Origin: Candidatus Methylomirabilota bacterium
Lineage (GTDB): Bacteria; Methylomirabilota; Methylomirabilia; Methylomirabilales; Methylomirabilaceae
Length of the DNA: 64,000 nt
Assembly: GCA_003104975.1 (NCBI GenBank)
Contig: PQAM01000010.1
Coordinates: 186,001-250,000 of the forward strand
Direction: 5' to 3'
The position numbers were made by a program, and so were the translations under genes. The notes below the pieces were generated by a model that ran no database searches, was not told the origin of the DNA, and saw nothing but the letters and a program-made list of their open reading frames with translations. Shown here in pieces: positions 45,277 to 64,000 of this stretch. Every line of letters begins with the position of its first letter. The stretch's first letter is position 1.

Positions 45277-45335
45277 AATTTTAGACACGCGCCGACAGGC
45301 CGAGGCTATGCCGGTCGTTGGAACGGAGTTGCCAC

Positions 45336-47789: not shown

Positions 47790-48454
47790 AACGAGACACG
47801 ATAGGGAAGAAGATCGGCGTGCTCATTGTGGACGATCACCCGGTCGTCAGGGTCGGACTGCGATCGTTGCTGAGCCGCGAACCGACCATTGAGGTGGTGG
47901 GTGAAGCGGGAACGGCGGCCGAGGCGGTGGCTCAGGCGGCGCGGCTGCAGCCGAACGTCATCATCATGGACGTGCGCTTACCCGACAGCAGCGGGGTTGA
48001 GGCCTGCAGGGAGATCCGGAGTGCCGATCCAAAAGCGCACATCATTATGCTGACCTCCCATGCCGATGAGGACGCCGTCTTCAACTCGATCATGGCGGGA
48101 GCCGCCGGCTACCTGTTGAAGCAGGTCTCGGAACCGGAACTCGTGCAGGCCATCGAGACCGTCGCAACCGGACAATCGCTGCTTGATCCGGCGGTGACGC
48201 ACAAGGTTCTGGAGAAGATCAAAAGGCTCGCGACCGGTCGAGGTATCAGTGAGATCTCTCAGCTTTCGGCCCAGGAGCAAAAGGTGCTGGCCCTCGTCTC
48301 TGAAGGCATGACCAATCGGGAGGTCGCACGCGCACTCGGACTGAGCGACAAGACGGTCAAGAACTATCTCTCCCACGTCTTCGAGAAACTCAACCTCTCC
48401 CGCCGCGCGGAGGCGGCGGCGTTCTTCGCCCGCCACCATATGAAGTTGCCCTGA
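47786..48454 (+). CDS. NarL/FixJ-family response regulator
   Basis: A 222-residue regulator. The receiver domain has the acidic pocket VLIVDDHPVV, phosphorylation Asp in VIIMDVRLPDSSG and Lys in YLLKQVSEPE. The C-terminal LuxR-type helix-turn-helix is LSAQEQKVLALVSEGMTNREV, then ARALGLSDKTVKNYLSHVFEKL. Its ATG overlaps the kinase stop (ATGA), so the pair is co-translated. Two overlapping palindromes lie right after it. Confidence 0.93.
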   Translation: MKRDTIGKKIGVLIVDDHPVVRVGLRSLLSREPTIEVVGEAGTAAEAVAQAARLQPNVIIMDVRLPDSSGVEACREIRSADPKAHIIMLTSHADEDAVFNSIMAGAAGYLLKQVSEPELVQAIETVATGQSLLDPAVTHKVLEKIKRLATGRGISEISQLSAQEQKVLALVSEGMTNREVARALGLSDKTVKNYLSHVFEKLNLSRRAEAAAFFARHHMKLP

Positions 48455-50872: not shown

Positions 50873-51394
50873 GTGAGGAATTTTTTCAGTAAACGAGTTG
50901 GGCTGGGCGTCGTGGCTGCCATTTTTCTGGTGGCCGGTATCGCCCTCTACGCCTCACGATCGGGCGATGCGGAACAGCCTATGCGCTTCAGTCACAAGGC
51001 CCATCTGAAGGATGCGAAGTGCAAGGCCTGTCATACCCATTACGAGAAACAGGCGGCGGCCGGGATGCCGCGGCTGGAGCACTGCATGGACTGTCACGAG
51101 GGAACCCAATCGAAGCAGGCTGAAGACGTGAAGGAAGAAGAGAGGCTGGCCGGCTACGCGGAAAAGCAGGAGGAGATCCACTGGGTCAGACTATACCGGA
51201 TTCCCGACCACTCCTTATTCTCTCACAGACTGCACGTCGTCAAGGGAAGACTCGAGTGCAAGACATGCCATGGCCCGATAGAGGCGAGCGAGACGGCTCC
51301 GCGCAGACCTGCGCAAGCGATCAGCATGGACTGGTGTATGTCATGCCACAAGGAGCGGCATGTCACCAATGACTGTAATACCTGTCATCGGTGA
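50873..51394 (+). CDS. pentaheme c-type cytochrome (QrcA/ActA-like)
   Basis: A 173-residue periplasmic or membrane-anchored cytochrome. One N-terminal helix (LGVVAAIFLVAGIALYA) precedes five CxxCH motifs: CKACH, CMDCH, CKTCH, CMSCH and CNTCH. The FSHKAHL and LFSHRLHV histidines are likely distal ligands, as in the cytochrome c7 / ActA-QrcA fold. It begins with GTG 15 bp after ndh. It is the expected electron-exit subunit of the complex encoded by the next three genes. Confidence 0.88.
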   Translation: MRNFFSKRVGLGVVAAIFLVAGIALYASRSGDAEQPMRFSHKAHLKDAKCKACHTHYEKQAAAGMPRLEHCMDCHEGTQSKQAEDVKEEERLAGYAEKQEEIHWVRLYRIPDHSLFSHRLHVVKGRLECKTCHGPIEASETAPRRPAQAISMDWCMSCHKERHVTNDCNTCHR

Positions 51395-51505: not shown

Positions 51506-53947
51506 ATGAAATTAAATCGTCGCGATTTTCTGAAGCTCTCGACCGCGGCCGTCGGCACGCTGGCGCTGCCGGGATGCGGCCTTGAAGGGCTGATCGAGAG
51601 CAAGAAGGCTCAATCGCCGTGGCCGCCCGGTCCTGAGCAATGGATCGCCTCTGTCTGCCAGCAGTGTCCTGGTGGCTGCGGCATCAGCGTCAGGGTTATC
51701 GACGGCAAGCCGATCAAGATCGACGGCCTTACGGCTCATCCGATTAATCAGGGCCGCTTGTGCGCCGTGGGGCAGTCGGGTCTCCAGGCGCTCTACGATC
51801 CCGATCGCATCAAAGGGCCGATGAGGCGGCTGGGCGGGAGGGGCTCGTCGCAATGGCAGAGCCTGAGCTGGGACGACGCAATCCGGATGGTGGCGGAGAA
51901 GCTCACCGAGATCAGGGAGCGCGGCGAACCTCATACGGTGGCCATCCTCGCCGGGCAGGTGCGCGGCCTTATGGACCGACTACTGGCCAGATTCCTGGAG
52001 GTGTACGGGTCTCCGAATTACATCCGCACCGTCGCCGACGGGACGGCCAAGGCCGTCCTGCTTACTCAGGGGATCGAGACGCTGGTGGGGTACGATCTTG
52101 AAAATTCGAACTTCATTCTCTCGTTCGGCCACAGTCTGCTCGAGACCGGCTGGTCGCCCGTCCTGGCCCACCGGACGTACGGGTATCTGAGGCAGGAGCG
52201 GCCGGGGACCAAGGCGAGCATTGTTGTCGTGGAGCCGCGCCTGTCGCTCACCGCGGCGAAGGCCGACAAGTGGATCCCTATCAATCCGGGTACCGATGGG
52301 GCGCTCGCGCTTGGTCTTGCGCACGTCATGGTTCGAGAGGGCCTGCACGATGAGGTGTTTGTTCGGGGGCAGACGTTCGGGTTTGAGGACTGGCGCGACG
52401 GTCAGGGCGTCTCTCATCTGGGCTTCAAGTCGGTCGTCTTGAAAGACTACCGACCGGATGCGGTGTCGGCGATTACCGGTGTGCCGGTCGAGACCATCGT
52501 CGAGCTGGCCAGACGGTTCGCTCGGGAGAAGCCGGCGGTGGCGCTGGCCGAGCGTGGGGCCAGCATGCACACCAACGGCCTGTATACCCGGATGGCCATC
52601 CATTGCTTGAATGCACTGGTGGGAAACCTTCAGGTCCTCGGCGGAGTCGTGCTGCCGGCCGAGGTCCCATCGGCGCCATGGCCTCCGGTGCTGGGCGATG
52701 CCGTTGCGAAAAGGGGACGATCGATGTCCCGAATCGATCAGGCCGGCAGTCGTCGTTTTCCTCTCGCATCTCACGTTGCCTCGCAGCTTCCCCACAGCAT
52801 CCGTCGAGGTGAGCCCTACTCGATCAACGCCCTCTTCTTGTACAACACGAACCCGATCCATGCCTATCCTGATGCCGTGGGGTTCGCACAAGCCTTTGAC
52901 AAGATCCCGTTCATTGTGAGCTTCTCGCCGTACATGGATGAAAGCACGGCGATGGCCGATCTGATCCTTCCCGATCACACCTATCTGGAGCGATGGCAGG
53001 ATGACCCGATGCTCCCTGTGATGAAGAACCCTGTCTTTGGGATCAGGCGGCCGGTCAGCAAACCGCTCTATGAGACGCGACACACCGGTGATGTGCTCAT
53101 CGGAATCGCCAAGGCGATGGGCGGCACAACTGCCGCGGCGCTGCCGTGGGACGACTTCGAGGGGATCATGAAGGGGGCTGCGAAAGCGATCTTCCAAAGC
53201 GCGAGAGGCACGCTGTTTCTTGGCTCACCCGCCGACGGTCAGCCCGCGGCGTCGCCGGCACCGAAGACGCGGCCGACCCGCTTCGGATCGTTTGAGGAGT
53301 TCTGGAAGGCACTGGTCGAGTGCGGCGGATGGTGGGATCCGGTCTATCCGTTCGACGGTCGCCGCAGTTCCTTGAAGACCGCCTCCGGAAAGTTTGAGTT
53401 CTACTCGCAGCACTTACGGCGAGTCTTGGAGCGCGCCGCGGCAGGGAAGTCGGTGGACGATCTGCTCCAGGAGCTGGGCATCGCTGCCCGGGGAGACCTG
53501 GCGTATCTGCCACACTACGAGCCCCCCCGGTTTGTGGGATCAGCCCAGGACTATCCGTTCCATCTCAATACCTACAAGGGCGCGACCTACGCCGGAAGCC
53601 GTGGCGCGCGCCAGCCGCATCTCCAGGAGATTGCAAAAAACCCGGTAGGCCTGCCATGGGATTCTTGGATCGAGGTCAATCCGAAGGCAGCCAGGCAGCT
53701 CGGGATTGCCGATAAGGACTGGGTCTGGGTGGAGTCACCCCACGGCAGGTTCAAGACGCGGGTGCGCCTTTATCCGGGAGCGATGCCTGATGTGGTCAAC
53801 ATGCCGCTTGGTCACGGGCATACGGCGAATGGCCGATGGGCGCGCGGAAGAGGGGAGAATCCCAACCGGATTCTCGGCGCGGAGTGGGATCGGTTGGCCG
53901 GATTCGTCGCCTGGTATGCGACGCGGGTCAGGCTGTCGAAAGCGTAA
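51506..53947 (+). CDS. molybdopterin-oxidoreductase-family catalytic-type subunit (QrcB-like)
   Basis: An 813-residue protein of the DMSO-reductase superfamily. MKLNRRDFLKLSTAAVG is a Tat signal with a lipobox ending in PGC, so it is exported folded and possibly lipid-anchored. The [4Fe-4S] site is CQQCPGGCG with a fourth Cys in RLCAVG. At the place of the usual Cys/Ser molybdenum ligand the sequence reads YIRTVADGTAKAVL, with no Cys. This fits QrcB and ActB proteins, in which the subunit carries no Mo and does not catalyse a Mo reaction. Phylogeny would be needed to separate Qrc from alternative complex III or a polysulfide-reductase type. Confidence 0.85.
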   Translation: MKLNRRDFLKLSTAAVGTLALPGCGLEGLIESKKAQSPWPPGPEQWIASVCQQCPGGCGISVRVIDGKPIKIDGLTAHPINQGRLCAVGQSGLQALYDPDRIKGPMRRLGGRGSSQWQSLSWDDAIRMVAEKLTEIRERGEPHTVAILAGQVRGLMDRLLARFLEVYGSPNYIRTVADGTAKAVLLTQGIETLVGYDLENSNFILSFGHSLLETGWSPVLAHRTYGYLRQERPGTKASIVVVEPRLSLTAAKADKWIPINPGTDGALALGLAHVMVREGLHDEVFVRGQTFGFEDWRDGQGVSHLGFKSVVLKDYRPDAVSAITGVPVETIVELARRFAREKPAVALAERGASMHTNGLYTRMAIHCLNALVGNLQVLGGVVLPAEVPSAPWPPVLGDAVAKRGRSMSRIDQAGSRRFPLASHVASQLPHSIRRGEPYSINALFLYNTNPIHAYPDAVGFAQAFDKIPFIVSFSPYMDESTAMADLILPDHTYLERWQDDPMLPVMKNPVFGIRRPVSKPLYETRHTGDVLIGIAKAMGGTTAAALPWDDFEGIMKGAAKAIFQSARGTLFLGSPADGQPAASPAPKTRPTRFGSFEEFWKALVECGGWWDPVYPFDGRRSSLKTASGKFEFYSQHLRRVLERAAAGKSVDDLLQELGIAARGDLAYLPHYEPPRFVGSAQDYPFHLNTYKGATYAGSRGARQPHLQEIAKNPVGLPWDSWIEVNPKAARQLGIADKDWVWVESPHGRFKTRVRLYPGAMPDVVNMPLGHGHTANGRWARGRGENPNRILGAEWDRLAGFVAWYATRVRLSKA

Positions 53948-53958
53948 GGGAGGGGTCA

Positions 53959-54660
53959 ATGCCACGATGGGGGATGGTGATCGATCTGGATAAGTGTGAC
54001 GGCTGCCAGGCCTGCGTGGTGGCCTGTCGGACGGAGAACAATGTCCCGGTCGCCGGGCCGGAGGAAGCCGAAAAAGGTCGAGCGATCTCTTGGATCGAGG
54101 TGCCCACGACCATCGAAGGGGACTATCCGAACGTGAGAACCCGCTTCATCCCGCGGCTCTGCATGCACTGTGATAACCCGCCTTGCACGGCGGTGTGCCC
54201 CACGGGCGCGACCTACAAGGATGAGGAGGGTCTGGTCGCGCAAATCTATCCGAGTTGCATCGGTTGTCGCTACTGCACCAGCGCCTGCCCGTATACGGTG
54301 AAGTACTTTAACTGGACGACACCCGAGTGGCCGGATCAGACGGATCATTTTAATCCGGACGTGGCCGTCAGACCGGTAGGGGTCGTCGAGAAATGTACGT
54401 TTTGCCACCATCGTCTGCAAAAGGGCAAAGAGCAGGCGAAGATCGAGGGGAGGGAGCTTCGAGAAGGAGATTATGTGCCGGCCTGTGTCCAGGCCTGCCC
54501 GACCAAGGCGATGTACTTCGGTGATCTGGACGATCCGGAGAGCACCGTCTCGCGGTTAGCGAAGAGCACTCGAAGCTTCCGGCTGCTTGAGGAACTGGGT
54601 ACGAAGCCCAAGGTTTACTACCTTACGGAAGGAGAGCGTTATGACGGAAAAAAGGAGTAG
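53959..54660 (+). CDS. four-cluster ferredoxin-like subunit (QrcC-like)
   Basis: A 233-residue iron-sulfur protein with four Cys groups: CDGCQACVVAC, CMHCDNPPCTAVC, CIGCRYCTSAC and CTFCHHRL...CVQAC, enough for four [4Fe-4S] clusters. It transfers electrons between the molybdopterin-family subunit and the membrane subunit. No signal peptide is present, so export with the Tat partner is likely. The ATG at 53959 follows GGGAGGGG. It overlaps the next gene by 20 bp. Confidence 0.92.
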   Translation: MPRWGMVIDLDKCDGCQACVVACRTENNVPVAGPEEAEKGRAISWIEVPTTIEGDYPNVRTRFIPRLCMHCDNPPCTAVCPTGATYKDEEGLVAQIYPSCIGCRYCTSACPYTVKYFNWTTPEWPDQTDHFNPDVAVRPVGVVEKCTFCHHRLQKGKEQAKIEGRELREGDYVPACVQACPTKAMYFGDLDDPESTVSRLAKSTRSFRLLEELGTKPKVYYLTEGERYDGKKE

Positions 54661-56089
54661 CCACCAACAAGGTATGGTCCTTTCAGGGCCGAGCGTCCAA
54701 GCCGAGCATGACTACAGCAGCCACGCGGCGCGGTTCGAGGATCCGGAATCTGACCTGATTCGGCCGATGCTCACAACCGGGAACGGGTTCTACCGGACTG
54801 CTGCCGCATTGGGCGCGGTGGCTGCGTGGGGGCTCTTCGCCTGGCTGTATCAACTCTGGAATGGCCTCGGCACCACGGGGCTGAACCGACCGGTCTACTG
54901 GGGTCTCTATGTGGTGAACTTCGTCTTCTTCATCGGCATCAGCCACGCCGGGACCCTGATCTCTGCCATCCTTCGGTTGTGCCAGGCAGAATGGCGACGG
55001 GCGATTACCCGGTCGGCCGAGATGATGACGGTCATTGCGCTCTTTTTCGGGGTGGGAAGCGTGGTTCTCGATCTCGGCAGACCGGACCGCGTCTTCTTAC
55101 TCTTTCGGGACGGCAACATTCAATCCCCATTGCTCTGGGACATGATCAGCATCACCGCGTATCTGACGATCAGCAGCATCTACCTCTACCTCGCGCTGAT
55201 CCCCGACATCGCGATCCTGCGGGATCGCGTACCGGGGCGCCGTTGGCTCTACCGTCCGCTTGCCCTGGGGTGGACGGGAAGCGAGCAACAGCAGCGGTAC
55301 TTAAAGGTCGCCATTGGGGTGATGTCCGTCCTCGTGATCCCGGCGGCGCTGCCGATCGATTCCTGGGTATTTGCCATGATCATTCAGCCGATGTGGCACA
55401 GCATCATCCTGGGGCCCTACTTTGCGGGGGCGATCTTCTCCGCCATCGCCGCGCTGCTCATCGTCATGGGGGTCATCAGGCGAGCCTACCATCTTGAGAA
55501 CTACCTCAAGCCGGCCCATTTCACCAATCTCGGCCTGCTGCTCGTGGCGATGTCGCTGATCTGGTTCTATTTCACCTTTGCGGCCCATTTGACCGTCTAT
55601 TACGGCGGCGCAACGAAAGAGCAGACGGTTTTCTTCAGTAAGCTCTTTGGTCCATATGCCCCGCTGTTCTGGGCCATGATGGCGACCAACGTCGTGATCC
55701 CGCTGCTGATCCTCAGCAACAGGCGGACCCGGACGGTGACGGGGACCATTGTGGCGTCGGTTGCCGTGACCGTCGGAATGTGGCTCGAGCGCTTGACCAT
55801 CGTGGTCCCCTCATTGGCCAACCCACGTCTGCCGTACGCCACAGGCGTGTATCACCCTTCATGGGTGGAATGGTCGGTGACGGCCGGTTTTCTTGCGATG
55901 TTCATCCTGGTGTACATGCTCTGCAGTAAGCTGTTTCCCATCGTATCGATCTGGGAGATCCGTGAGGGCAGGGAGAAAGGGTTCGCGGAGGCTCGCGAAA
56001 GGATCGAGAGCTACCTCCCGGGTTGGGCGGTCCTCGGGGCGAGGCCGGTCCGAATCCGAAATGATGATGATAGGGTACTTCAAAATTAG
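54641..56089 (+). CDS. NrfD/PsrC-like membrane subunit (QrcD-like)
   Basis: A 482-residue integral membrane protein with about ten helices that binds menaquinol in this family. VVNFVFFIGISHAGTLISAI holds the conserved His/Asn region of NrfD proteins, and VLDLGRPDRVFLL is a further hallmark. The ATG at 54641 lies inside the preceding gene after GGAGAG. It completes a four-subunit complex that could pass electrons from menaquinol to the pentaheme cytochrome. Confidence 0.9.
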   Translation: MTEKRSSHQQGMVLSGPSVQAEHDYSSHAARFEDPESDLIRPMLTTGNGFYRTAAALGAVAAWGLFAWLYQLWNGLGTTGLNRPVYWGLYVVNFVFFIGISHAGTLISAILRLCQAEWRRAITRSAEMMTVIALFFGVGSVVLDLGRPDRVFLLFRDGNIQSPLLWDMISITAYLTISSIYLYLALIPDIAILRDRVPGRRWLYRPLALGWTGSEQQQRYLKVAIGVMSVLVIPAALPIDSWVFAMIIQPMWHSIILGPYFAGAIFSAIAALLIVMGVIRRAYHLENYLKPAHFTNLGLLLVAMSLIWFYFTFAAHLTVYYGGATKEQTVFFSKLFGPYAPLFWAMMATNVVIPLLILSNRRTRTVTGTIVASVAVTVGMWLERLTIVVPSLANPRLPYATGVYHPSWVEWSVTAGFLAMFILVYMLCSKLFPIVSIWEIREGREKGFAEARERIESYLPGWAVLGARPVRIRNDDDRVLQN

Positions 56090-56153: not shown

Positions 56154-56516
56154 ATGAGGATGCCACTGAAGCGGTTCTGTTCGGTCGTAGGCGCTACGAC
56201 GTTGTTCGTGGTGATAAGTGCGATGTCAGGCGGATCGGCCTTTGGAGCCGATATGGCGAACGCGAAGAAGATTTACGCGGACAAGTGCCTGAAGTGCCAC
56301 GGGGAGACAGGAAAAGGGGATGGGCCCAAGGCCGATACGCTGGAGACAAAAGCCAGGGACTACACCAACAAGAAGGAGATGGCCAAGTTCACCGATGCAG
56401 ACCTGATAAAGGTCACGAAGGACGGCAAGAAGCCGATGCCGGGATACGCGACGAAGCTGAGCGACCAGGAGATCGCCGACGTGATCGCCTACATCCGGAC
56501 CTTTGCCAAGCCATAG
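56154..56516 (+). CDS. periplasmic monoheme cytochrome c
   Basis: A 120-residue class I cytochrome c with a signal peptide (ending GGSAFGA), heme site CLKCHGE and the distal Met probably in KKPMPGYATKL. The C-terminal helix DQEIADVIAYIRTF is characteristic. GGGAGGG precedes the ATG. As last gene after the Qrc-like subunits it is a likely soluble electron acceptor. Confidence 0.93.
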   Translation: MRMPLKRFCSVVGATTLFVVISAMSGGSAFGADMANAKKIYADKCLKCHGETGKGDGPKADTLETKARDYTNKKEMAKFTDADLIKVTKDGKKPMPGYATKLSDQEIADVIAYIRTFAKP

Positions 56517-56818: not shown

Positions 56819-59149
56819 ATGAGCGTGAGGTTCAGAAGGTTTCTCGGCCTAGGGGCGTGGCTGCTTGTTGTCGTCGGGTTGACCGCCCTGCTGTCTGTGG
56901 GTCTGGCGCCGCGCACCGCCGAGGCGAAGCCAGAGTATTTCAGCGGCATTGGCGCGTGCTTTGCCTGCCACTCAGCACCCACGCCGGCCACCTGTCAGGG
57001 GTGCCACTCGCATGGCACGCATTCGAGCACCGCCATGACCGGCATGAACGTGGCGGGCGCCACCAATAAGACCTCGTACGCGCCCGGCGAACAGGTGAGT
57101 GTCACCATTACGGGCGGCCATATACCGTCCGGCACCGCGACCGGCGGGTGGATTCGCGCCATTCTGTACGATCAAACGATGAAAGAGCTGGTGCGCAGTA
57201 GCGGGCCGACCCAGGGAATCGGCAAGTGCTGCGGCAACACAGGCTATCCGATCACGCTCACCGCGCCTGCGCCGACCACGCCGGGGACCTACACCTGGAA
57301 CGTCGCGTGGTACGGGAACAAATTTGATAAGACCGACGCGCAGAGCGGTACCACCGTGTTCGGTCCCCGCTGGACGCCCGATTCCACCAATCCGAACCAC
57401 GGCCAAGAGATCGTCGCGACCAACAGCTTCACGGTTTCCGCCCCGACGGCGGCCGCCATTTCGCTGAACCCGGCGTCGCTGACCTTCGGTACGGTCAACA
57501 CCGGCAGCACAGCCACACTGACCGCCCAGATTCAGAACACCGGGACGGCCACGCTCAACGTCACCGGCATCGCGCGGGCGGCTGGAACGAGCACCGAGTA
57601 CACCTTCGGGCCGGCCGCTCCCCTCACGATTCCCGCCGGGGGCAGCAACACCCTCTCCGTCACCTACACGCCGACCGATGCCGGCACCGACACCGGCTCG
57701 CTGGCGATCACGAGCAACGCCTCAACCTCGCCGACCAGCCTGTCGCTTACAGGGACGGGCAGTGTCGCCCCGCCGCCACCCGGTCAACAACCGGCCATCA
57801 GCCTGAGCCTCGCCGCGCTGGACTTCGGCACGGTCGCGGTGGGTAGCCCTCCGGCTGTGAAGACGACACAGATCCAGAATACCGGAACAGCCCCGCTTGA
57901 GGTGACCGGCATCGCACCGGCTGCCGGGACCAGCACCGAGTACACCTCCACACCGGCGGCGCCGTTCACCGTTGCGGCCGGCGCCAACACGACCCTCACC
58001 GTCACCTACACGCCGGTGGACGCGGGCACCGACGCCGGCTCGCTGGCGATCACGAGCAACGCCTCGACCTCGCCGACCAGCCTGTCGCTCACAGGGACGG
58101 GCAGTGTCGCCCCGCCGCCACCCGGTCAACAACCGACCATCGGCCTGACGCCGACCTCGCTGGACTTCGGTACGGTCGCGGTGGGCGAGCCAGCCGGTGA
58201 ACTGGTAACGACGATCCAGAACACAGGAGGAGCCTCGCTTGAAATCACCGGGATTGCCCTGTGCGCCGGGACGAGCGCAGAGTTCACCTGGTCGCCGGGC
58301 ACGCCGCTGACCGTCGCGTCCGGAGCGAGCGCGCCGCTGAGCGTGCACTATACCCCGGCGGATGCGGGGGCCGACGCTGGGTGTCTCGCGATCGCCAGTA
58401 ACGATCCGGCCGCGCCGTCGGCGCAGTTGGCAGTCGCTGGGACCGGGGGTATCTCGTCGTCGCCGCCACCCAATCCACAACCGACCATCGGCCTGACGCC
58501 GACCGCTTTGGACTTCGGCACAGTCGTGGTGGGGGGCTCGGTCTCGAAGACTGCGACCATCACCAACCTGGGGACCGCTTCGCTGGATGTGACCAGCATC
58601 GGCTCGTGTAACGCAAGCAGCGCGGAGTTCGCGTATTCTCCTCTGGCGCCATTTACCCTGGCCCCGGGCGCCCAGCAAACGGTCACGATCAGCTACGCGC
58701 CGACCCAAGCCGGGACGATGGCCATGGAGTGCCTGGTTGCAAGCAACGACCCGGCCACACCATCGGTCTCGGTGAACCTGACCGCGGAAGGGGTCTCGCC
58801 GTCGCCGGCCGGAGGGCTGAACATCGAGCTCAAGCACTTCCGCGCGACCAAAAAAGTCAAGATCGGCCGGCAGGTCACATTCAGGCTTGACATCGAGAAT
58901 GAAGAAGACTCGAGCGGAGAGCTGCCTGCCAGCCTGGTAGGGATCCAGAACGGCGTGGAGGTGTACAACGAAACCATCACCATATTCGCCGAGCCGGCGA
59001 TGGAAGAAGCGAGATGGTCGTTCCCGTCCTATACGCCGACGGCAAAGGGGAAGATCACGTGGATCGTGACCATCGTGGACGACTCCTCCCGTACCAATCA
59101 GGCAACAGCCATCACGAAGGTTAAGGGTAAGAAGGGTAACGGCCACTAA
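56819..59149 (+). CDS. diheme protein with reeler-like and four HYDIN-type domains (copy 1)
   Basis: A 776-residue exported protein. After a signal peptide (ending RTAEA) come two heme sites, CFACH and CQGCH, with extra histidines (SHGTHS). A ~130-residue beta domain (SYAPGEQVSVTI ... FGPRWTPDSTNPNHGQEI) resembles reeler-type domains. Four ~105-residue choice-of-anchor D/HYDIN-like repeats follow (each with LDFGTVxVG and TNTGTAxLxVTGI-type motifs), then a ~110-residue C-terminal domain and a short basic end. The ATG at 56819 follows GGAGGAGG. The role is unknown; a surface or periplasmic electron-transfer adhesin is a guess. Confidence 0.85.
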   Translation: MSVRFRRFLGLGAWLLVVVGLTALLSVGLAPRTAEAKPEYFSGIGACFACHSAPTPATCQGCHSHGTHSSTAMTGMNVAGATNKTSYAPGEQVSVTITGGHIPSGTATGGWIRAILYDQTMKELVRSSGPTQGIGKCCGNTGYPITLTAPAPTTPGTYTWNVAWYGNKFDKTDAQSGTTVFGPRWTPDSTNPNHGQEIVATNSFTVSAPTAAAISLNPASLTFGTVNTGSTATLTAQIQNTGTATLNVTGIARAAGTSTEYTFGPAAPLTIPAGGSNTLSVTYTPTDAGTDTGSLAITSNASTSPTSLSLTGTGSVAPPPPGQQPAISLSLAALDFGTVAVGSPPAVKTTQIQNTGTAPLEVTGIAPAAGTSTEYTSTPAAPFTVAAGANTTLTVTYTPVDAGTDAGSLAITSNASTSPTSLSLTGTGSVAPPPPGQQPTIGLTPTSLDFGTVAVGEPAGELVTTIQNTGGASLEITGIALCAGTSAEFTWSPGTPLTVASGASAPLSVHYTPADAGADAGCLAIASNDPAAPSAQLAVAGTGGISSSPPPNPQPTIGLTPTALDFGTVVVGGSVSKTATITNLGTASLDVTSIGSCNASSAEFAYSPLAPFTLAPGAQQTVTISYAPTQAGTMAMECLVASNDPATPSVSVNLTAEGVSPSPAGGLNIELKHFRATKKVKIGRQVTFRLDIENEEDSSGELPASLVGIQNGVEVYNETITIFAEPAMEEARWSFPSYTPTAKGKITWIVTIVDDSSRTNQATAITKVKGKKGNGH

Positions 59150-59202
59150 ATTGCCGAAGGCCCGTTATGCGAGAACGTTCCGCATCGCGAACGTCCCGAT
59201 CG

Positions 59203-59236
59203 AACAGGTGGGGAGCCGTCCGGCTCCCCACCTGTT
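59203..59236. terminator. strong hairpin after diheme-HYDIN copy 1
   Basis: AACAGGTGGGGAGCCG and its exact reverse complement, 16-bp arms with a 2-base loop. No long U-run follows. The same element, with a changed loop, lies after copy 2. Confidence 0.7.
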
Positions 59237-59351
59237 TACGCGCATCTTCAGCGCCTGTTCCCGATTCGCTCTGTCTGCAGTGCAGTAACGATGAACGTCA
59301 ATGTCTGAGGTCAACCGCAACATGTGGGATGCAGTGGAGGAGGAAACAAAA

Positions 59352-61724
59352 ATGCGTGTGCGGTTCAGAAGGTTTCCCGGTGTAATGGCGTGTCTGCTTG
59401 GTGTCCTTTGGCTGGCGGCCCTGCTTTCCGTGGGTCTGGCGCCGCGCACCGCCGAGGCGAAGCCAGAGTATTTCAGCGGCATTGGCGCGTGCTTTGCCTG
59501 CCACTCAGCACCCACGCCCGCCACCTGTCAGGGGTGCCACTCGCATGGGACGCATTCGAGTACCGGCATGACCGGCATGAACGTGGCGGGCGCCACCAAT
59601 AAAACCTCGTACGCGCCCGGCGAACAGGTGAGTGTCACGATTACGGGCGGCCACCGACCAGACGGACAATCCGGATGGATTCGCGCCATTCTGTACGATC
59701 AAACAATGAAAGAGCTGGTGCGCAGTAGCGGGCCGACCCAGGGAATCGGCAAGTGCTGCGGCAACACAGGCTATCCGATCACGCTCACCGCGACTGCGCC
59801 GACCACGCCGGGGACCTACACCTGGAACGTCGCCTGGTACGGGAACCAATTTGATAAGGGCAACGTGGGCGGCACGACAGTGTTCGGTCCCCGCTGGACG
59901 CCCGATTCCACCAATCCAAACCACGGCCAAGAGATCGTCGCGACCAACAGCTTCACGGTGGCTGCCCCGGCGGCGCCCGCCATTTCACTGAACCCGGCGT
60001 CGCTCACCTTTGGGACGGTCAACACCGGCAGCACGGTCACCCTGACCGCCCAGATCCGGAATACCGGCACGGCCACGCTCAACGTCACCGGCATTGCGCG
60101 GGCGGCGGGGACGAGCACCGAGTACACCTTCGGGCCGGCCGCTCCCCTCACGATTCCCGTCGGGGGCAGCAACACCCTCTCCGTCACCTACACGCCGACC
60201 GATGCCAGCACCGACACCGGCTCGCTGACGATCACGAGCAACGCTTCGACCTCGCCCACCAGCCTGTCGCTGACAGGGACGGGCAGTGTGCCGTCACCCC
60301 CTTCACAACCGGCCATTAGTCTGAGCCTCGCCGCGCTGGACTTCGGCACGGTCGCGGTAGGCGGCGTGCCGGCGGTGCGGACGACACAGATCCAGAATAC
60401 CGGGAATGCTGCCCTGGACGTCACCGGCATCGCACCGGCGGCAGGGACGAGCGCCGAGTATATTTTTACCCCGACGCCACCCTTTACCGTTGCGGCCGGC
60501 GCCAACACGACCCTCACCGTCACCTACACGCCGGTGGACGTAGGCACGGACACCGGCTCGCTGACGATCACCAGCAACGCCTCGACCTCGCCCACCAGCC
60601 TGTCGCTGACAGGGACGGGCAGTGTCCCGCCACCCCCTTCACAACCGGCAATCGGCCTGACGCCGCCCTCGCTCGATTTCGGCACGGTCAACGTCGGCGG
60701 TCCGTCAGGAGATTTGACGACAACGATCCAGAACACAGGAGGAGCCTCGCTTGAAATCACCGGCATCGCCCTGTGTCCAGGAACCAGCGGAGAGTTCACC
60801 TGGTCGCCGGGTAGCCCGCTGACCGTCGCGCCAGGCGCCGGCACGACGCTGACCGTCCACTATACCCCTGCGGATGCCGGGACCGATGCCGGGTGTCTCG
60901 CGATCGCCAGTAACGATCCGGCCACGCCCTCGGCGAACCTGGCGGTCACCGGGATCGGGAATATCCCGCCGCCGCCACCCGATCCACAACCGACCATCGG
61001 CCTGACGCCGACCTCGCTCAACTTCGGCACGGTTGTGGTGGGGGGCTCGGTGTCCAAGACCGTCACCATCACCAACCTGGGCACCGCCCCGCTGGATGTG
61101 ACCAGCATCGGCTCGTGTAACGCGGCCAGTGCGGAGCTGACGTATGCTCCTCCGGCCCCATTTACCCTGGCCCCAGGCGCCCAGCAAACGGTCACGATCA
61201 GCTACGCGCCGACCCAGGCAGGGACGATGGCCATGGAGTGTCTGGTTGCAAGCAACGACCTGGCCACACCATCGGTCCCGGTGACCCTGACCGCGGAGGC
61301 GGTCCAACCGCCCCCGCCCGGAGGGCTAGACATCGAGCTCGAGCACTTCAAAGCAACCAAAAAGGTCAAGGTCGGTCAGCAGGTCACGTTCAAGCTTGAA
61401 ATCGAGAATGAGGAAGAGTCGAGTGGAGAGACGCCTGCCACCCTGGTGGGAATGCAAAACGGAGTGGAGGTGTACAACCAGACCATCATGGTAGTCGTTG
61501 AGGCAGAGGAGGAAGAAACGACCTGGTCGTTCCCGCCGTACACACCGACGGCGGCAGGGAAGATCGCCTGGACCGTGACCATCATGGACGACTCCTCCCG
61601 TACCAATCAGGCAACTGCGACCACTGACGTGAAGGGCACCAAAAAGAAGGAGAAGAAGGAGGAGAAGAAGAAGATGAAGAAGGTGAAGAAGGTGAAGAAG
61701 GGAAAGAAGAAAGATAACGACTAA
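59352..61724 (+). CDS. diheme protein with reeler-like and four HYDIN-type domains (copy 2)
   Basis: A 790-residue tandem paralogue of copy 1, with the same order: signal peptide, CFACH and CQGCH, reeler-like domain, four HYDIN-type repeats and C-terminal domain. The region around the hemes is nearly identical in DNA to copy 1. It differs by a long Lys/Glu-rich tail (GTKKKEKKEEKKKMKKVKK and onward), which could bind polyanions such as LPS or DNA. The ATG at 59352 follows GGAGGAGG. Downstream hairpin and spacer are duplicated too. Confidence 0.85.
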   Translation: MRVRFRRFPGVMACLLGVLWLAALLSVGLAPRTAEAKPEYFSGIGACFACHSAPTPATCQGCHSHGTHSSTGMTGMNVAGATNKTSYAPGEQVSVTITGGHRPDGQSGWIRAILYDQTMKELVRSSGPTQGIGKCCGNTGYPITLTATAPTTPGTYTWNVAWYGNQFDKGNVGGTTVFGPRWTPDSTNPNHGQEIVATNSFTVAAPAAPAISLNPASLTFGTVNTGSTVTLTAQIRNTGTATLNVTGIARAAGTSTEYTFGPAAPLTIPVGGSNTLSVTYTPTDASTDTGSLTITSNASTSPTSLSLTGTGSVPSPPSQPAISLSLAALDFGTVAVGGVPAVRTTQIQNTGNAALDVTGIAPAAGTSAEYIFTPTPPFTVAAGANTTLTVTYTPVDVGTDTGSLTITSNASTSPTSLSLTGTGSVPPPPSQPAIGLTPPSLDFGTVNVGGPSGDLTTTIQNTGGASLEITGIALCPGTSGEFTWSPGSPLTVAPGAGTTLTVHYTPADAGTDAGCLAIASNDPATPSANLAVTGIGNIPPPPPDPQPTIGLTPTSLNFGTVVVGGSVSKTVTITNLGTAPLDVTSIGSCNAASAELTYAPPAPFTLAPGAQQTVTISYAPTQAGTMAMECLVASNDLATPSVPVTLTAEAVQPPPPGGLDIELEHFKATKKVKVGQQVTFKLEIENEEESSGETPATLVGMQNGVEVYNQTIMVVVEAEEEETTWSFPPYTPTAAGKIAWTVTIMDDSSRTNQATATTDVKGTKKKEKKEEKKKMKKVKKVKKGKKKDND

Positions 61725-61957: not shown

Positions 61958-62962
61958 ATGAACCAACGTGACGTTGTGACTCTTGCAGCCGTGTTGACCC
62001 TTGTCCTGCTCGTTGGATCGTCCTGCAGTCGTCTTCCCTGGTCGCCCGACTCACCCTCCTCAGGGACCAAAGAGCTCACCGCGCAAGCCCCTTCTACAAC
62101 AACAACCGACGCGTCCAAGCCTCGATGGACAGGTCCGCCCGCAGGCGCCAAATACGTGGGAGTGCCGGCGTGTCTCGAATGTCACAAGAAGGCTGATCCC
62201 TTTTTCGCGACGCACATGGGGAAACTCTTTACAAAGAACCCTCAGACTGCGGGGCAGAAGCTGAACTGCGAGACGTGCCACGATCCGGGAGGCCCGCACG
62301 TCGAGACCGAGGGGGAAGCGCTTGGGACGATCGTGACGTTCAGAAAGGGCGCCGAACCGGTCGAGGTGCAAAACGCCAAGTGCCTGGGCGCGTGCCACAC
62401 GAAAGATGTGAAGCAGATGTTCTGGGCGAGCAGCGTCCATGGAACTCGTGGCATCTCTTGCGTCGATTGTCATACCGCCCACCGTCCTCAGATGGCGAAG
62501 GCGATCCTGAAGGGACCCACTGTCGCCGAAACGTGCAATGCATGCCACGTGGAGATGAAGCGGCACCTCTACGAGCGCTCAACCCACCCGGTTAAAGAGG
62601 GCAAGATGTCATGCACGAGCTGCCATGATCCTCATGGGAGCCAGGCCCCCTCCATGCTGGTGAAGAATTCGGTCAACGATACCTGTTATGGGTGCCATGC
62701 GGAGTTTCGCAGTCCCGTCCTATGGGAACATGCCCCCGTCAAGGAGAATTGCGGCAACTGTCATACGCCTCACGGGTCAAACCATGACAAACTGCTCAAG
62801 ACCAACAGCTTCAGGTTGTGCCAGAGCTGTCATATGCAGGGACGACACCAGACGATCGCTGGGCGTCCCGATCAGTTTTTCATGATCAACCGAGGTTGCA
62901 CGAACTGCCACAACCGGATCCATGGGAGCAATCACCCCTCTGGGCCGCTGTTCTTCCGTTAG
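61958..62962 (+). CDS. decaheme c-type cytochrome lipoprotein (MtrA/PioA/DmsE-like)
   Basis: A 334-residue multiheme cytochrome with lipobox-like LLVGSSC at the N-terminus. Nine CxxCH sites are visible (CLECH, CETCH, CVDCH, CNACH, CTSCH, CYGCH, CGNCH, CQSCH, CTNCH), plus one CLGACH, a CX3CH variant, as the third site. Total length and ten hemes match MtrA/PioA-type cytochromes, which insert in an outer-membrane barrel to move electrons across. The porin gene follows 42 bp later. GAGGAG precedes the ATG. Confidence 0.88.
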   Translation: MNQRDVVTLAAVLTLVLLVGSSCSRLPWSPDSPSSGTKELTAQAPSTTTTDASKPRWTGPPAGAKYVGVPACLECHKKADPFFATHMGKLFTKNPQTAGQKLNCETCHDPGGPHVETEGEALGTIVTFRKGAEPVEVQNAKCLGACHTKDVKQMFWASSVHGTRGISCVDCHTAHRPQMAKAILKGPTVAETCNACHVEMKRHLYERSTHPVKEGKMSCTSCHDPHGSQAPSMLVKNSVNDTCYGCHAEFRSPVLWEHAPVKENCGNCHTPHGSNHDKLLKTNSFRLCQSCHMQGRHQTIAGRPDQFFMINRGCTNCHNRIHGSNHPSGPLFFR

Positions 62963-63004
62963 GCCGAAAGTGCATCGCTCCCATCGATCGTGAGAGGGCC
63001 AACC

Positions 63005-64000
63005 ATGAACGCCAATAAGCTGGTTCGGTGGGTTGGGTCAGCGTTCTTCTCGCTCGGTTTCCTGCTTCTGGCACTTCCGGGTATCCTCTATGCCGAACAG
63101 GAGATAGAGCTTGACGGGAGGAAGTTTACCCTCTTTGGGGAGGGACAGATCGGGGTTCAGCTCAAGGAGTTTAGTCACGGTACGCGGACCTCGAAGTTTG
63201 AGGAGTACCGGGAGGTCCACCGTGGATTCAACTTCGACCTCTTCCAGTTCGGCCTGGAGGGGAAGGACAACCCGTATTATCTCAGAGGCTCCGGCACAAA
63301 CATCGATAGGGATGACCAGTCATTTGATCTCACCTTTGGGAAATACGGTGAGCTGATGGTCAATTTCTCGTGGGACGAGATCCCCCATTTCTTCTCACGA
63401 GGCTCCAAGAGTCTTCTGACCCACACCGGCGGCGGCAACTTCGTATTTGCCAACACGACGGCCCGCCAGTTCTTCACCGACAACGACCCGAACTCCCCTC
63501 CAGCGGCGCCGGATACGGGCGACGTCGCGACCGCCAATCTGGCCCGCGCGCTCATCAACGACGCCCCCGATCTCAATCTTCGCCTCCAGAGGCGTCGGGC
63601 CAAGGGTGACATCCTGTACAGTCTCTATCCCGGCAGCGACCTCAGGTGGAACTTCCGCTTCCGCATCGACAATGAGGACAAGGAGGGAAACCGGGCGTTG
63701 AGCACGGGGACCTACGAACGCCGGCTTGTTCCGGGGCTGGGCGACACATTCCGGGTTCTGGGGATTGAGCTGCCGGAGCCGCTCGACCACCAGACCACTC
63801 AGATCGGATTCGCCACCGACCTCTCCGGAGATGGATGGATCGTCAACCTGGGGTATGACTATATGAATTTCAGCAACGATACGACGCGCCTCCACTGGCA
63901 AAATCCGTTCAATAATACGGATGAGCTGGCGCCAGGCGCCGGAGCGTTTAATCGGGGCCGATTTGCTGAAGCCCAGATCCAACTCTTTCCGGATAACCAC
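63005..64000 (+). CDS. MtrB/PioB-family outer-membrane porin (3' end outside window)
   Basis: The first 332 codons of an open frame that runs off the window. A signal peptide (LLLALPGILYA) is followed by alternating beta strands (FGEGQIGVQLKEF, YYLRGSGTNIDRDDQSFDLTFG in part YYLRGSGTNIDRDD, LMVNFSWDEIPHFFS), a pattern of MtrB/PioB-type decaheme-associated barrels. No Cys occurs in the visible part, so the CxxC of some MtrB proteins is absent. With the preceding decaheme cytochrome it would form an outer-membrane electron conduit. GAGAGG precedes the ATG. Confidence 0.82.
   Translation, partial: MNANKLVRWVGSAFFSLGFLLLALPGILYAEQEIELDGRKFTLFGEGQIGVQLKEFSHGTRTSKFEEYREVHRGFNFDLFQFGLEGKDNPYYLRGSGTNIDRDDQSFDLTFGKYGELMVNFSWDEIPHFFSRGSKSLLTHTGGGNFVFANTTARQFFTDNDPNSPPAAPDTGDVATANLARALINDAPDLNLRLQRRRAKGDILYSLYPGSDLRWNFRFRIDNEDKEGNRALSTGTYERRLVPGLGDTFRVLGIELPEPLDHQTTQIGFATDLSGDGWIVNLGYDYMNFSNDTTRLHWQNPFNNTDELAPGAGAFNRGRFAEAQIQLFPDNH

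What the first reader, a model, noticed from the sequence alone, without database searches (positions are those of the whole stretch)
56819..61724. Tandem diheme-HYDIN proteins: a possibly undescribed electron-transfer surface protein
Two paralogues join two c-type heme sites, a reeler-like domain and four HYDIN-type beta-sandwiches. They lie between a Qrc-like complex and an outer-membrane cytochrome-porin conduit. An extended rod with hemes at one end could carry electrons along or away from the cell surface.
Basis: inference. Interest (0 to 1): 0.75.

Follow-up and report, generated by a model that had tools for sequence, protein, structure and literature searches.

The report
Two stalked diheme proteins beside electron-export genes
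A bacterium of a methane-oxidising group carries two copies of a little-known exported protein that puts a two-heme head on a stalk of structural domains, encoded among genes for moving electrons out of the cell; it probably helps pass electrons at the cell surface, but this is untested.

Summary
Two adjacent genes (56819-59149, 59352-61724; proteins 84% identical, dN/dS 0.29) encode proteins with a signal peptide (by eye), two CxxCH sites, an Ig-like domain, four HYDIN/ASH domains and a conserved C-terminal domain. They lie between a Qrc-like complex plus monoheme cytochrome c and an MtrA/MtrB-type pair; a second MtrAB pair, Rieske/cytochrome b and further multihemes follow outside the window. 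I place the genome in Ca. Methylomirabilis.

The same head was found in 2 of 95 genomes of this phylum and 4 of 195 Myxococcota. Four complete relatives have 2-7 HYDIN repeats; one passes the MYXO-CTERM (surface tag) cut-off and one nearly does; read by eye, their neighbours are not electron-export genes. No OmcA/MtrC match was found in this genome. Best reading (0.42): a diheme head tethered on a spacer, working with the neighbouring MtrAB pair at the outer face. 'Along the rod' is not supported: the ~570 residues after the head hold no heme motif. Heme loading, surface location and partners are inferred. The link to electron export rests on one lineage. HYDIN repeats are known; the head reaches no Pfam or NCBIfam cut-off. 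New variant of a known kind.

The parts
56819..59149 (+). diheme-HYDIN protein 1 (DH1), 776 aa
   Evidence: dN/dS against copy 2 = 0.29
56819..56926 (+). DH1 signal peptide (residues 1-36, cleavage after AEA by eye; no lipobox seen)
   Evidence: sequence; no signal-peptide program was available
56927..57028 (+). DH1 diheme segment; CFACH at 56957-56971, CQGCH at 56993-57007
   Evidence: CxxCH positions; the 4 Cys and 2 His invariant in 8 of 8 heads
57029..57442 (+). DH1 Ig-like head domain, with invariant His194 as a possible heme ligand
57443..58789 (+). DH1 four ASH/HYDIN (choice_anch_D) domains
58790..59146 (+). DH1 C-terminal domain, no Pfam (E 1) or NCBIfam (E 0.1) match, kept in the two Anaeromyxobacteraceae relatives
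59352..61724 (+). diheme-HYDIN protein 2 (DH2), 790 aa
59490..59540 (+). DH2 heme motifs CFACH and CQGCH
59559..59963 (+). DH2 Ig-like head domain
59964..61301 (+). DH2 four ASH/HYDIN domains
61302..61721 (+). DH2 C-terminal domain and lysine-rich tail (last 30 residues, about 61632-61721)
50873..51394 (+). QrcA-like multiheme cytochrome (5 CxxCH in the printed sequence, and 5 in its G024 and G032 counterparts)
   Evidence: 89.1 bits, cut-off 180
51506..53947 (+). QrcB-like molybdopterin-type subunit
   Evidence: QrcB 338.5 bits, cut-off 440; ArrA 356.7, cut-off 1600
53962..54660 (+). QrcC-like iron-sulfur subunit
   Evidence: QrcC 297.1 bits, cut-off 400; DsrO 201.8, cut-off 200 (run on 53836-54660)
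54641..56089 (+). QrcD/DsrP-like membrane subunit
   Evidence: DsrP 101.5 of 350, QrcD 54.4 of 570 bits (run on 54587-56089)
56154..56516 (+). small monoheme cytochrome c
   Evidence: cytochrome c6-like, below cut-off
61958..62962 (+). MtrA/DmsE-type decaheme cytochrome (MtrA1)
   Evidence: TIGR03508 230.2 bits, cut-off 192.2
62990..64000 (+). MtrB/PioB-type porin (MtrB1), runs past the window end
   Evidence: TIGR03509 304.2 bits when taken whole, cut-off 240.05

Best explanation
DH1 and DH2 are exported c-type cytochromes with a compact two-heme head on a spacer of four HYDIN-type Ig domains. They act with the neighbouring MtrA1/MtrB1 conduit. Most likely they sit on the outer face, held through the C-terminal domain, and the tethered head takes electrons from the conduit and delivers them to a mineral, partner cell or soluble acceptor; flow in the opposite direction, into the cell, is also possible. 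The HYDIN domains set reach; they do not conduct. Shown here: gene reality, the two heme motifs, domain order, purifying selection, neighbours, and no OmcA/MtrC match in the genome at E 0.001. Inferred: signal peptide (by eye), heme attachment, export across the outer membrane, docking to MtrAB, and direction of flow.
For: Two CxxCH plus three further invariant His (H65, H68, H194 of DH1), all in the head, in 8 of 8 heads from six genomes: enough for two bis-His hemes. Gene order Qrc-like - cytochrome c - DH1 - DH2 - MtrA1 - MtrB1 - MtrA2 - MtrB2 - Rieske - cytochrome b - multihemes (the labels Rieske and cytochrome b are by eye). No TIGR03507 (OmcA/MtrC) match at E 0.001 in the own genome or G024, while the four Myxococcota carriers each have at least one (over cut-off in 3 of 4). 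The MtrA1/MtrB1 pair is extra: MtrB1 is 28-33% identical to the genus's MtrB sequences, whereas those found in the 9 other MtrB-bearing genomes are 71-85% identical to MtrB2. HYDIN number varies (6, 6, 2, 7 in four relatives; 4 and 4 here) while the head stays, as expected of a spacer. A MYXO-CTERM end passes its cut-off in L005 (22.9, cut-off 20) and nearly in L004 (15.6, cut-off 15.85); that tag directs proteins to the cell surface by T2SS in Myxococcus xanthus (PMC11980579, passages). A GspD match reaches 371.7 bits with neighbouring pieces added (cut-off 351.35) in the own genome. PgcA shows that tethered hemes without a packed chain can serve mineral reduction (PMC11520253, abstract).
Against: The window copies have no MYXO-CTERM or other recognised anchor; export across the outer membrane is unshown. 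The Myxococcota relatives are not near electron-export genes as read by eye. Selection does not single out the hemes: between DH1 and DH2 the 34-codon heme segment has dN 0 (dS 0.14), but that lies in the gene-converted front half, and against G024 the same segment has dN 0.20, among the highest of all parts (whole gene 0.13). G024's contig ends inside the gene, so its MtrAB linkage cannot be seen. G032 has Qrc-like and MtrAB genes side by side without a DH gene, and of 23 of 95 genomes with a QrcB relative at E 1e-100 only 2 have DH. Gaps of 302, 202 and 233 bases separate cytochrome c, DH1, DH2 and MtrA1 (coordinates), so one operon is not shown. The head model is poor (mean pLDDT 57).
Confidence: 0.42

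Rival explanations
1. Periplasmic relay: the protein stays in the periplasm. The head shuttles electrons between the Qrc-like complex or cytochrome c and MtrA, and the rod spans or scaffolds the periplasm, perhaps tied by the C-terminal domain or lysine tail.
For: Signal peptide by eye but no surface anchor in the window copies; genes lie between the inner-membrane and outer-membrane modules; lysine-rich tail in DH2.
Against: A MYXO-CTERM surface tag in at least one homologue; G032 manages without DH at this place.
Confidence: 0.25
2. Adhesin or matrix protein: HYDIN repeats and C-terminal domain serve attachment or cell contact. The hemes are secondary (local electron exchange at contact sites, or heme-based sensing).
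For: Ig-type repeats are common in adhesins (recalled); the model's weak matches include the biofilm scaffold RbmA (Z 8.6, among many unrelated Ig-like chains); Myxococcota copies are not beside electron-export genes as read by eye; the heme segment is not the slowest part against G024. Adhesion-type domains in a surface cytochrome have precedent: fibronectin domains in OetF of syntrophic sulfate reducers (PMC10553843, passages).
Against: Heme Cys and His, and three further head His, are invariant in 8 of 8 heads; the window copies lie in an electron-transfer cluster.
Confidence: 0.22
3. Accidental neighbour: a horizontally acquired surface protein that landed in this cluster and does something unrelated (heme or peroxide handling).
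For: The head tree groups the Methylomirabilis copies with Anaeromyxobacteraceae (99/98, midpoint root); found in only 2 of 95 genomes of the phylum; GC of DH1/DH2 (0.659, 0.641) is above that of 12 neighbouring genes (0.564-0.631), though repeat composition could do this.
Against: Retained in two species in the same order after Qrc-like genes and cytochrome c, duplicated in one, and under purifying selection.
Confidence: 0.11

Closest known systems
PgcA of Geobacter sulfurreducens (tethered triheme extracellular cytochrome; PMC5732950 passages, PMC11520253 abstract)
   Same: Few hemes, large non-heme repetitive linkers, exported; tethered rather than packed-chain transfer is the mechanism proposed there.
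   Different: PgcA has three CxxCH motifs separated by PT-rich repeats; here two adjacent CxxCH motifs at one end, then folded Ig-like domains. No sequence comparison was made.
OmcA/MtrC outer-surface decaheme cytochromes (TIGR03507)
   Same: Gene position beside an MtrA/MtrB pair; possible role at the outer face of the conduit.
   Different: No TIGR03507 match in DH1/DH2 at E 0.1; two heme motifs rather than ten; no lipobox seen.
Choice-of-anchor D / ASH-HYDIN repeat proteins (NF012200, PF15780, PF22544)
   Same: Four repeats per protein, well over cut-off.
   Different: These models cover only the repeats; the diheme head and C-terminal domain lie outside them.
Choice-of-anchor V (NF041895) and Reeler (PF02014) domains
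   Same: Weak similarity of the two G134 heads to choice_anch_V and of one to Reeler.
   Different: Below cut-off in the 8 heads tested; neither window head matches at E 10.
OetF-type cytochrome with fibronectin domains (PMC10553843, passages)
   Same: Adhesion-type beta-sandwich domains joined to a cytochrome thought to belong to an electron-export conduit.
   Different: Known to me only from that passage; not compared by sequence.

Membership tests
choice_anch_D / ASH-HYDIN repeat | NCBIfam NF012200 over 45 bits | tested here: met
   219.4 and 228.9 bits, four stretches each
OmcA/MtrC (TIGR03507) | profile match over cut-off | tested here: not met
   No match for DH1/DH2 at E 0.1; none in the own genome at E 0.001
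choice_anch_V (NF041895) | profile match over 42 bits | tested here: not met
   Neither window head matches at E 10; 2 of 8 heads (both G134) at 15.3 and 23.2 bits, 27.6 for a longer piece
Reeler (PF02014) | Pfam match over 21 bits | tested here: not met
   1 of 8 heads (G134, L017) at 16.8 bits, E 0.01; neither window head
MYXO-CTERM sorted proteins | C-terminal tag over cut-off | tested here: not met
   Absent from DH1/DH2 at E 0.1. Of 4 relatives tested: L005 22.9 (cut-off 20), L004 15.6 (TIGR03382 cut-off 15.85), L017 only JDVT-CTERM 19.2 (cut-off 27), L016 no sorting-tag match; L016 and L017 ends look similar by eye
c-type cytochrome | CxxCH motifs in an exported protein | tested here: met
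   two each; export read from the signal peptide by eye only
c-type cytochrome | covalent heme | not testable with these tools
   needs heme staining or mass spectrometry
Qrc menaquinone reductase (upstream neighbours) | QrcA-D equivalog cut-offs | tested here: not met
   89/180, 338/440, 297/400, 54/570 bits; a related complex, not the equivalog
MtrAB conduit (downstream neighbours) | TIGR03508 and TIGR03509 cut-offs | tested here: met
   MtrA1 230.2 (192.2); MtrB1 304.2 and MtrB2 301.6 (240.05); MtrA2 271
PgcA-type tethered cytochrome | three heme domains separated by PT-rich linkers | tested here: not met
   two CxxCH twelve residues apart, then folded domains

The most novel reading that the evidence does not exclude
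DH1/DH2 are a new class of outer-surface partner for an MtrAB conduit: a diheme head on a HYDIN stalk of variable length takes the place of MtrC in a methanotroph without a detectable MtrC, so that Ca. Methylomirabilis can exchange electrons with minerals or partner cells. The stalk sets the reach, and transfer is by tethered swinging of the head.
Probability: 0.24. Interest if true: 0.75.

Novelty: new variant of a known kind. Interest (0 to 1): 0.5.

Why it matters
Methane oxidisers of this genus are best known for using nitrite (PMC11264602, passages). Genes called mtrA have been reported in Methylomirabilota MAGs from Lake Baikal (PMC10386581, passages) and the genus is listed among iodate reducers (PMC11302344, one passage), so some capacity to use outside acceptors is already suspected. 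What is added here is a detailed cluster with two outer-membrane conduits and an unclassified stalked diheme protein in the position of the usual surface cytochrome. That would make extracellular electron exchange by these bacteria, and an alternative to MtrC, directly testable. If the hemes work, repeat number in this family gives a natural series for asking how spacer length sets electron-delivery distance.

Tried and rejected
Electrons conducted along the rod: rejected, since no CxxCH follows the one at residues 59-63 of either protein. The paired Cys of ASH3 and ASH4, about 40 residues apart, look like disulfides (inference). Head as a known fold: the low-confidence model matches many unrelated Ig-like sandwiches, best Z 9.0, and only one chain at E below 0.001, with TM 0.31, so no family is named. 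Head in the solved-structure library by profile: best E 0.012, a dextranase, taken as chance or generic Ig. Relatives in plasmids: none at E 0.01. Relatives in viral contigs: 14 pattern stretches, none a relative. Promoter and terminator scan: 0 promoter-like sites (shuffles 0.8) and 1 terminator-like site on the other strand (shuffles 4.9), so no operon boundary is claimed. Wider head search by profile in the phylum at E 0.1: 18 of 95 genomes, but beyond G000 and G024 only matches at E 0.002-0.07 and at most 19.2 bits; these were treated as chance and not examined.

Print searches found no description of this architecture: 'choice-of-anchor' (20 papers, 15 listed), HYDIN + c-type cytochrome + extracellular (0 papers), cytochrome + immunoglobulin-like domains + extracellular electron transfer (2 papers), Methylomirabilis with extracellular electron transfer and MtrB (4 papers), with multiheme cytochrome (12), with decaheme (6), NC10 + porin-cytochrome (3), Methylomirabilota + extracellular electron transfer + cytochrome (8). 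I read listings, and passages or an abstract of eight papers, so this is not proof of absence.

Limits of the searches. The scan of named genomes (84,980 species) used exact short peptides of the window copy: 25 stretches matched and 2 were relatives; it is not exhaustive. The Myxococcota search scored at most 18 candidates per genome, so 4 of 195 is a lower bound, and two of the four (G095, G096) were the starting points. The QrcB search scored at most 10 per genome. Phyla other than Methylomirabilota and Myxococcota were not searched by profile. Neighbours of relatives were named by eye, over about 10 kb on each side (L004), a whole 10 kb contig (L005), 16 kb (L016) and the first 9 kb of their contigs (L017, L018).

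Full report
WHAT IS THERE. Two genes in tandem on the + strand (56819-59149 and 59352-61724) encode proteins of 776 and 790 residues, 84% identical (648 of 768 aligned residues). Each has a signal peptide (by eye), two CxxCH motifs 12 residues apart, an Ig-like domain, four HYDIN/ASH repeats and a C-terminal domain of about 120 residues without a Pfam match at E 1 or an NCBIfam match at E 0.1. Protein 2 ends in a lysine-rich tail. By composition about 0.0015 CxxCH motifs would be expected per protein. dN/dS is 0.29 between the copies, 0.38 for DH1 against G024 and 0.27 for DH2 against G024. The genes are therefore real and constrained.

SELECTION ON THE HEMES. Between the copies the 34-codon heme segment has dN 0 with dS 0.14. 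Against G024 the same segment has dN 0.20, about as high as the signal peptide and above the whole-gene value of 0.13. The first figure lies in a gene-converted stretch (below), so selection does not single out the heme segment; what is fixed is the heme-binding residues themselves.

GENOME. The assembly has 3.0 Mb in 19 contigs and an AMO/PmoA gene well over cut-off. A genome of the same genus is a single contig of 2,752,854 bases; I recall that as the size of Ca. Methylomirabilis oxyfera, so I place the window in that genus. The species is not known.

NEIGHBOURHOOD. Upstream lie a Qrc-like complex (all four subunits below the Qrc cut-offs) and a monoheme cytochrome c; downstream lie a DmsE/MtrA-type decaheme (230.2 bits, cut-off 192.2) and an MtrB-type porin (304.2, cut-off 240.05). 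Beyond the window follow a second MtrA/MtrB pair, a Rieske protein and cytochrome b (by eye), a 9-heme, a 3-heme and a 13-heme protein by CxxCH count. The second pair is the one shared by the genus: MtrB2 has 71-85% identity to the MtrB of the 9 other genomes where one was found (one of these split in two pieces), MtrB1 28-33%. MtrB was found in 10 of 15 genomes of the genus, over cut-off in 9. So MtrA1/MtrB1, like DH1/DH2, look like additions to a shared core. G032 has the core and a Qrc-like complex next to it but no DH gene. A QrcB relative (E 1e-100) occurs in 23 of 95 genomes of the phylum, DH in 2. G024 has the kinase, regulator, NDH-2-like (by eye), Qrc-like, cytochrome c and DH genes in the same order, but its contig ends inside DH; another contig begins inside cytochrome b. 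The missing stretch would hold MtrAB if the order is kept. No OmcA/MtrC match was found at E 0.001 in the own genome or G024.

RELATIVES. The head was found in 2 of 95 genomes of the phylum, own included (G000 twice, G024 once; a profile added no convincing one), and in 4 of 195 Myxococcota (five loci; at most 18 candidates scored per genome). Two of these four are named: Anaeromyxobacter oryzae and an Anaeromyxobacteraceae MAG. In that pair the whole architecture including the C-terminal domain is kept. HYDIN stretches counted by NF012200 are 4 and 4 here and 6, 6, 2 and 7 in L004, L005, L017 and L016; the G125 copy (L018) and the G024 copy are cut by contig ends and not counted. Four heme Cys, two heme His and three further His are invariant in 8 of 8 heads. 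A head tree puts the Methylomirabilis copies with the Anaeromyxobacteraceae (99/98), apart from the other Myxococcota copies; the root is by midpoint only. Transfer between these groups is likely, direction open. Neighbours in Myxococcota, read by eye, are ABC-transport and glycogen genes (L004), RND efflux and hemerythrin-like genes (L005) and others, not electron-export genes; L016 has a protein with one CxxCH nearby.

SURFACE EVIDENCE. MYXO-CTERM passes its cut-off in L005 and just misses it in L004; L017 has only a sub-threshold JDVT-CTERM match and L016 none, though both ends look alike by eye. In Myxococcus xanthus the tag sends proteins to the surface by T2SS, and TraA without it is released outside by T2SS (PMC11980579, passages). 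The window copies lack the tag. GspD is present in the own genome at 371.7 bits with neighbouring pieces added (cut-off 351.35). Surface location here is therefore an inference.

STRUCTURE. The head alone: mean pLDDT 57, Ig-like strands confident in part, heme segment not. Full length: the four HYDIN domains have block pLDDT mostly 78-94 and their best matches are axonemal central-apparatus chains, at low whole-chain TM; head and C-terminal domain are poorly predicted, from four aligned sequences.

COPIES. Between DH1, DH2 and G024, 458 informative sites show a mosaic: before about residue 317 the two copies agree against G024 at 67% of sites, after it at 34%; 0 of 2000 permutations reach this contrast, though the block 600-674 again shows the copies alike (37 of 60 sites). 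This fits a duplication older than or near the split from G024 with later gene conversion, and predicts a second copy in G024.

MECHANISM. The proteins most likely hold two hemes at one end, and the HYDIN domains act as a spacer; six Ig-sized domains would reach roughly 20-25 nm (my estimate, not computed). Electrons cannot run along the spacer since it has no heme motif; the head must swing or touch. A periplasmic relay is the main rival (0.25), then an adhesin (0.22). PgcA is the nearest working model (PMC11520253, abstract).

NOVELTY. HYDIN repeats and CxxCH hemes are known; so are cytochromes with fibronectin or Ig-like domains (PMC10553843 and PMC10376724, passages). The head reaches no Pfam or NCBIfam cut-off in 8 of 8 sequences tested, with sub-threshold choice_anch_V and Reeler matches in the G134 copies, and my print searches did not find the architecture. 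I therefore rate it a new variant of a known kind.

Noticed in passing
G000:C10:251516-254942 (MtrA2/MtrB2) and genus genomes: Within the genus MtrB and AMO/PmoA were found in the same 10 of 15 genomes, as if an outer-membrane electron conduit belonged to the methanotrophic clade; incompleteness may contribute, since 4 of the 5 lacking both are 80-83% complete and G024 has a contig gap there. A non-methanotrophic clade of the genus is described in PMC11264602 (passages).
   Followed up: partly
window 56819-61724: DH1/DH2 form a gene-conversion mosaic with a break near residue 317.
   Followed up: yes
window 45318-48454: A histidine kinase and a response regulator (by eye) lie upstream of the cluster and are kept in order in G024; possibly its regulator.
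   Followed up: no
L049:12771-14279 (G032): A protein with four CxxCH motifs lies right after QrcD, between it and the monoheme cytochrome c; the listed reading frame overlaps QrcD. ORFs with four CxxCH also flank the Qrc-like genes in L054 (G008).
   Followed up: no
L020:6832-9702 (G000:C10 about 426831-429701): Another own-genome protein with a HYDIN-like stretch (38% over residues 554-644 of DH1, E 6e-6), without CxxCH, in a region that looks by eye like polysaccharide genes.
   Followed up: no
window 58784-59137 and 61293-61643: The C-terminal domain was found in this phylum only in the DH genes (3 places, 2 of 95 genomes, single-sequence search) and is unclassified.
   Followed up: partly
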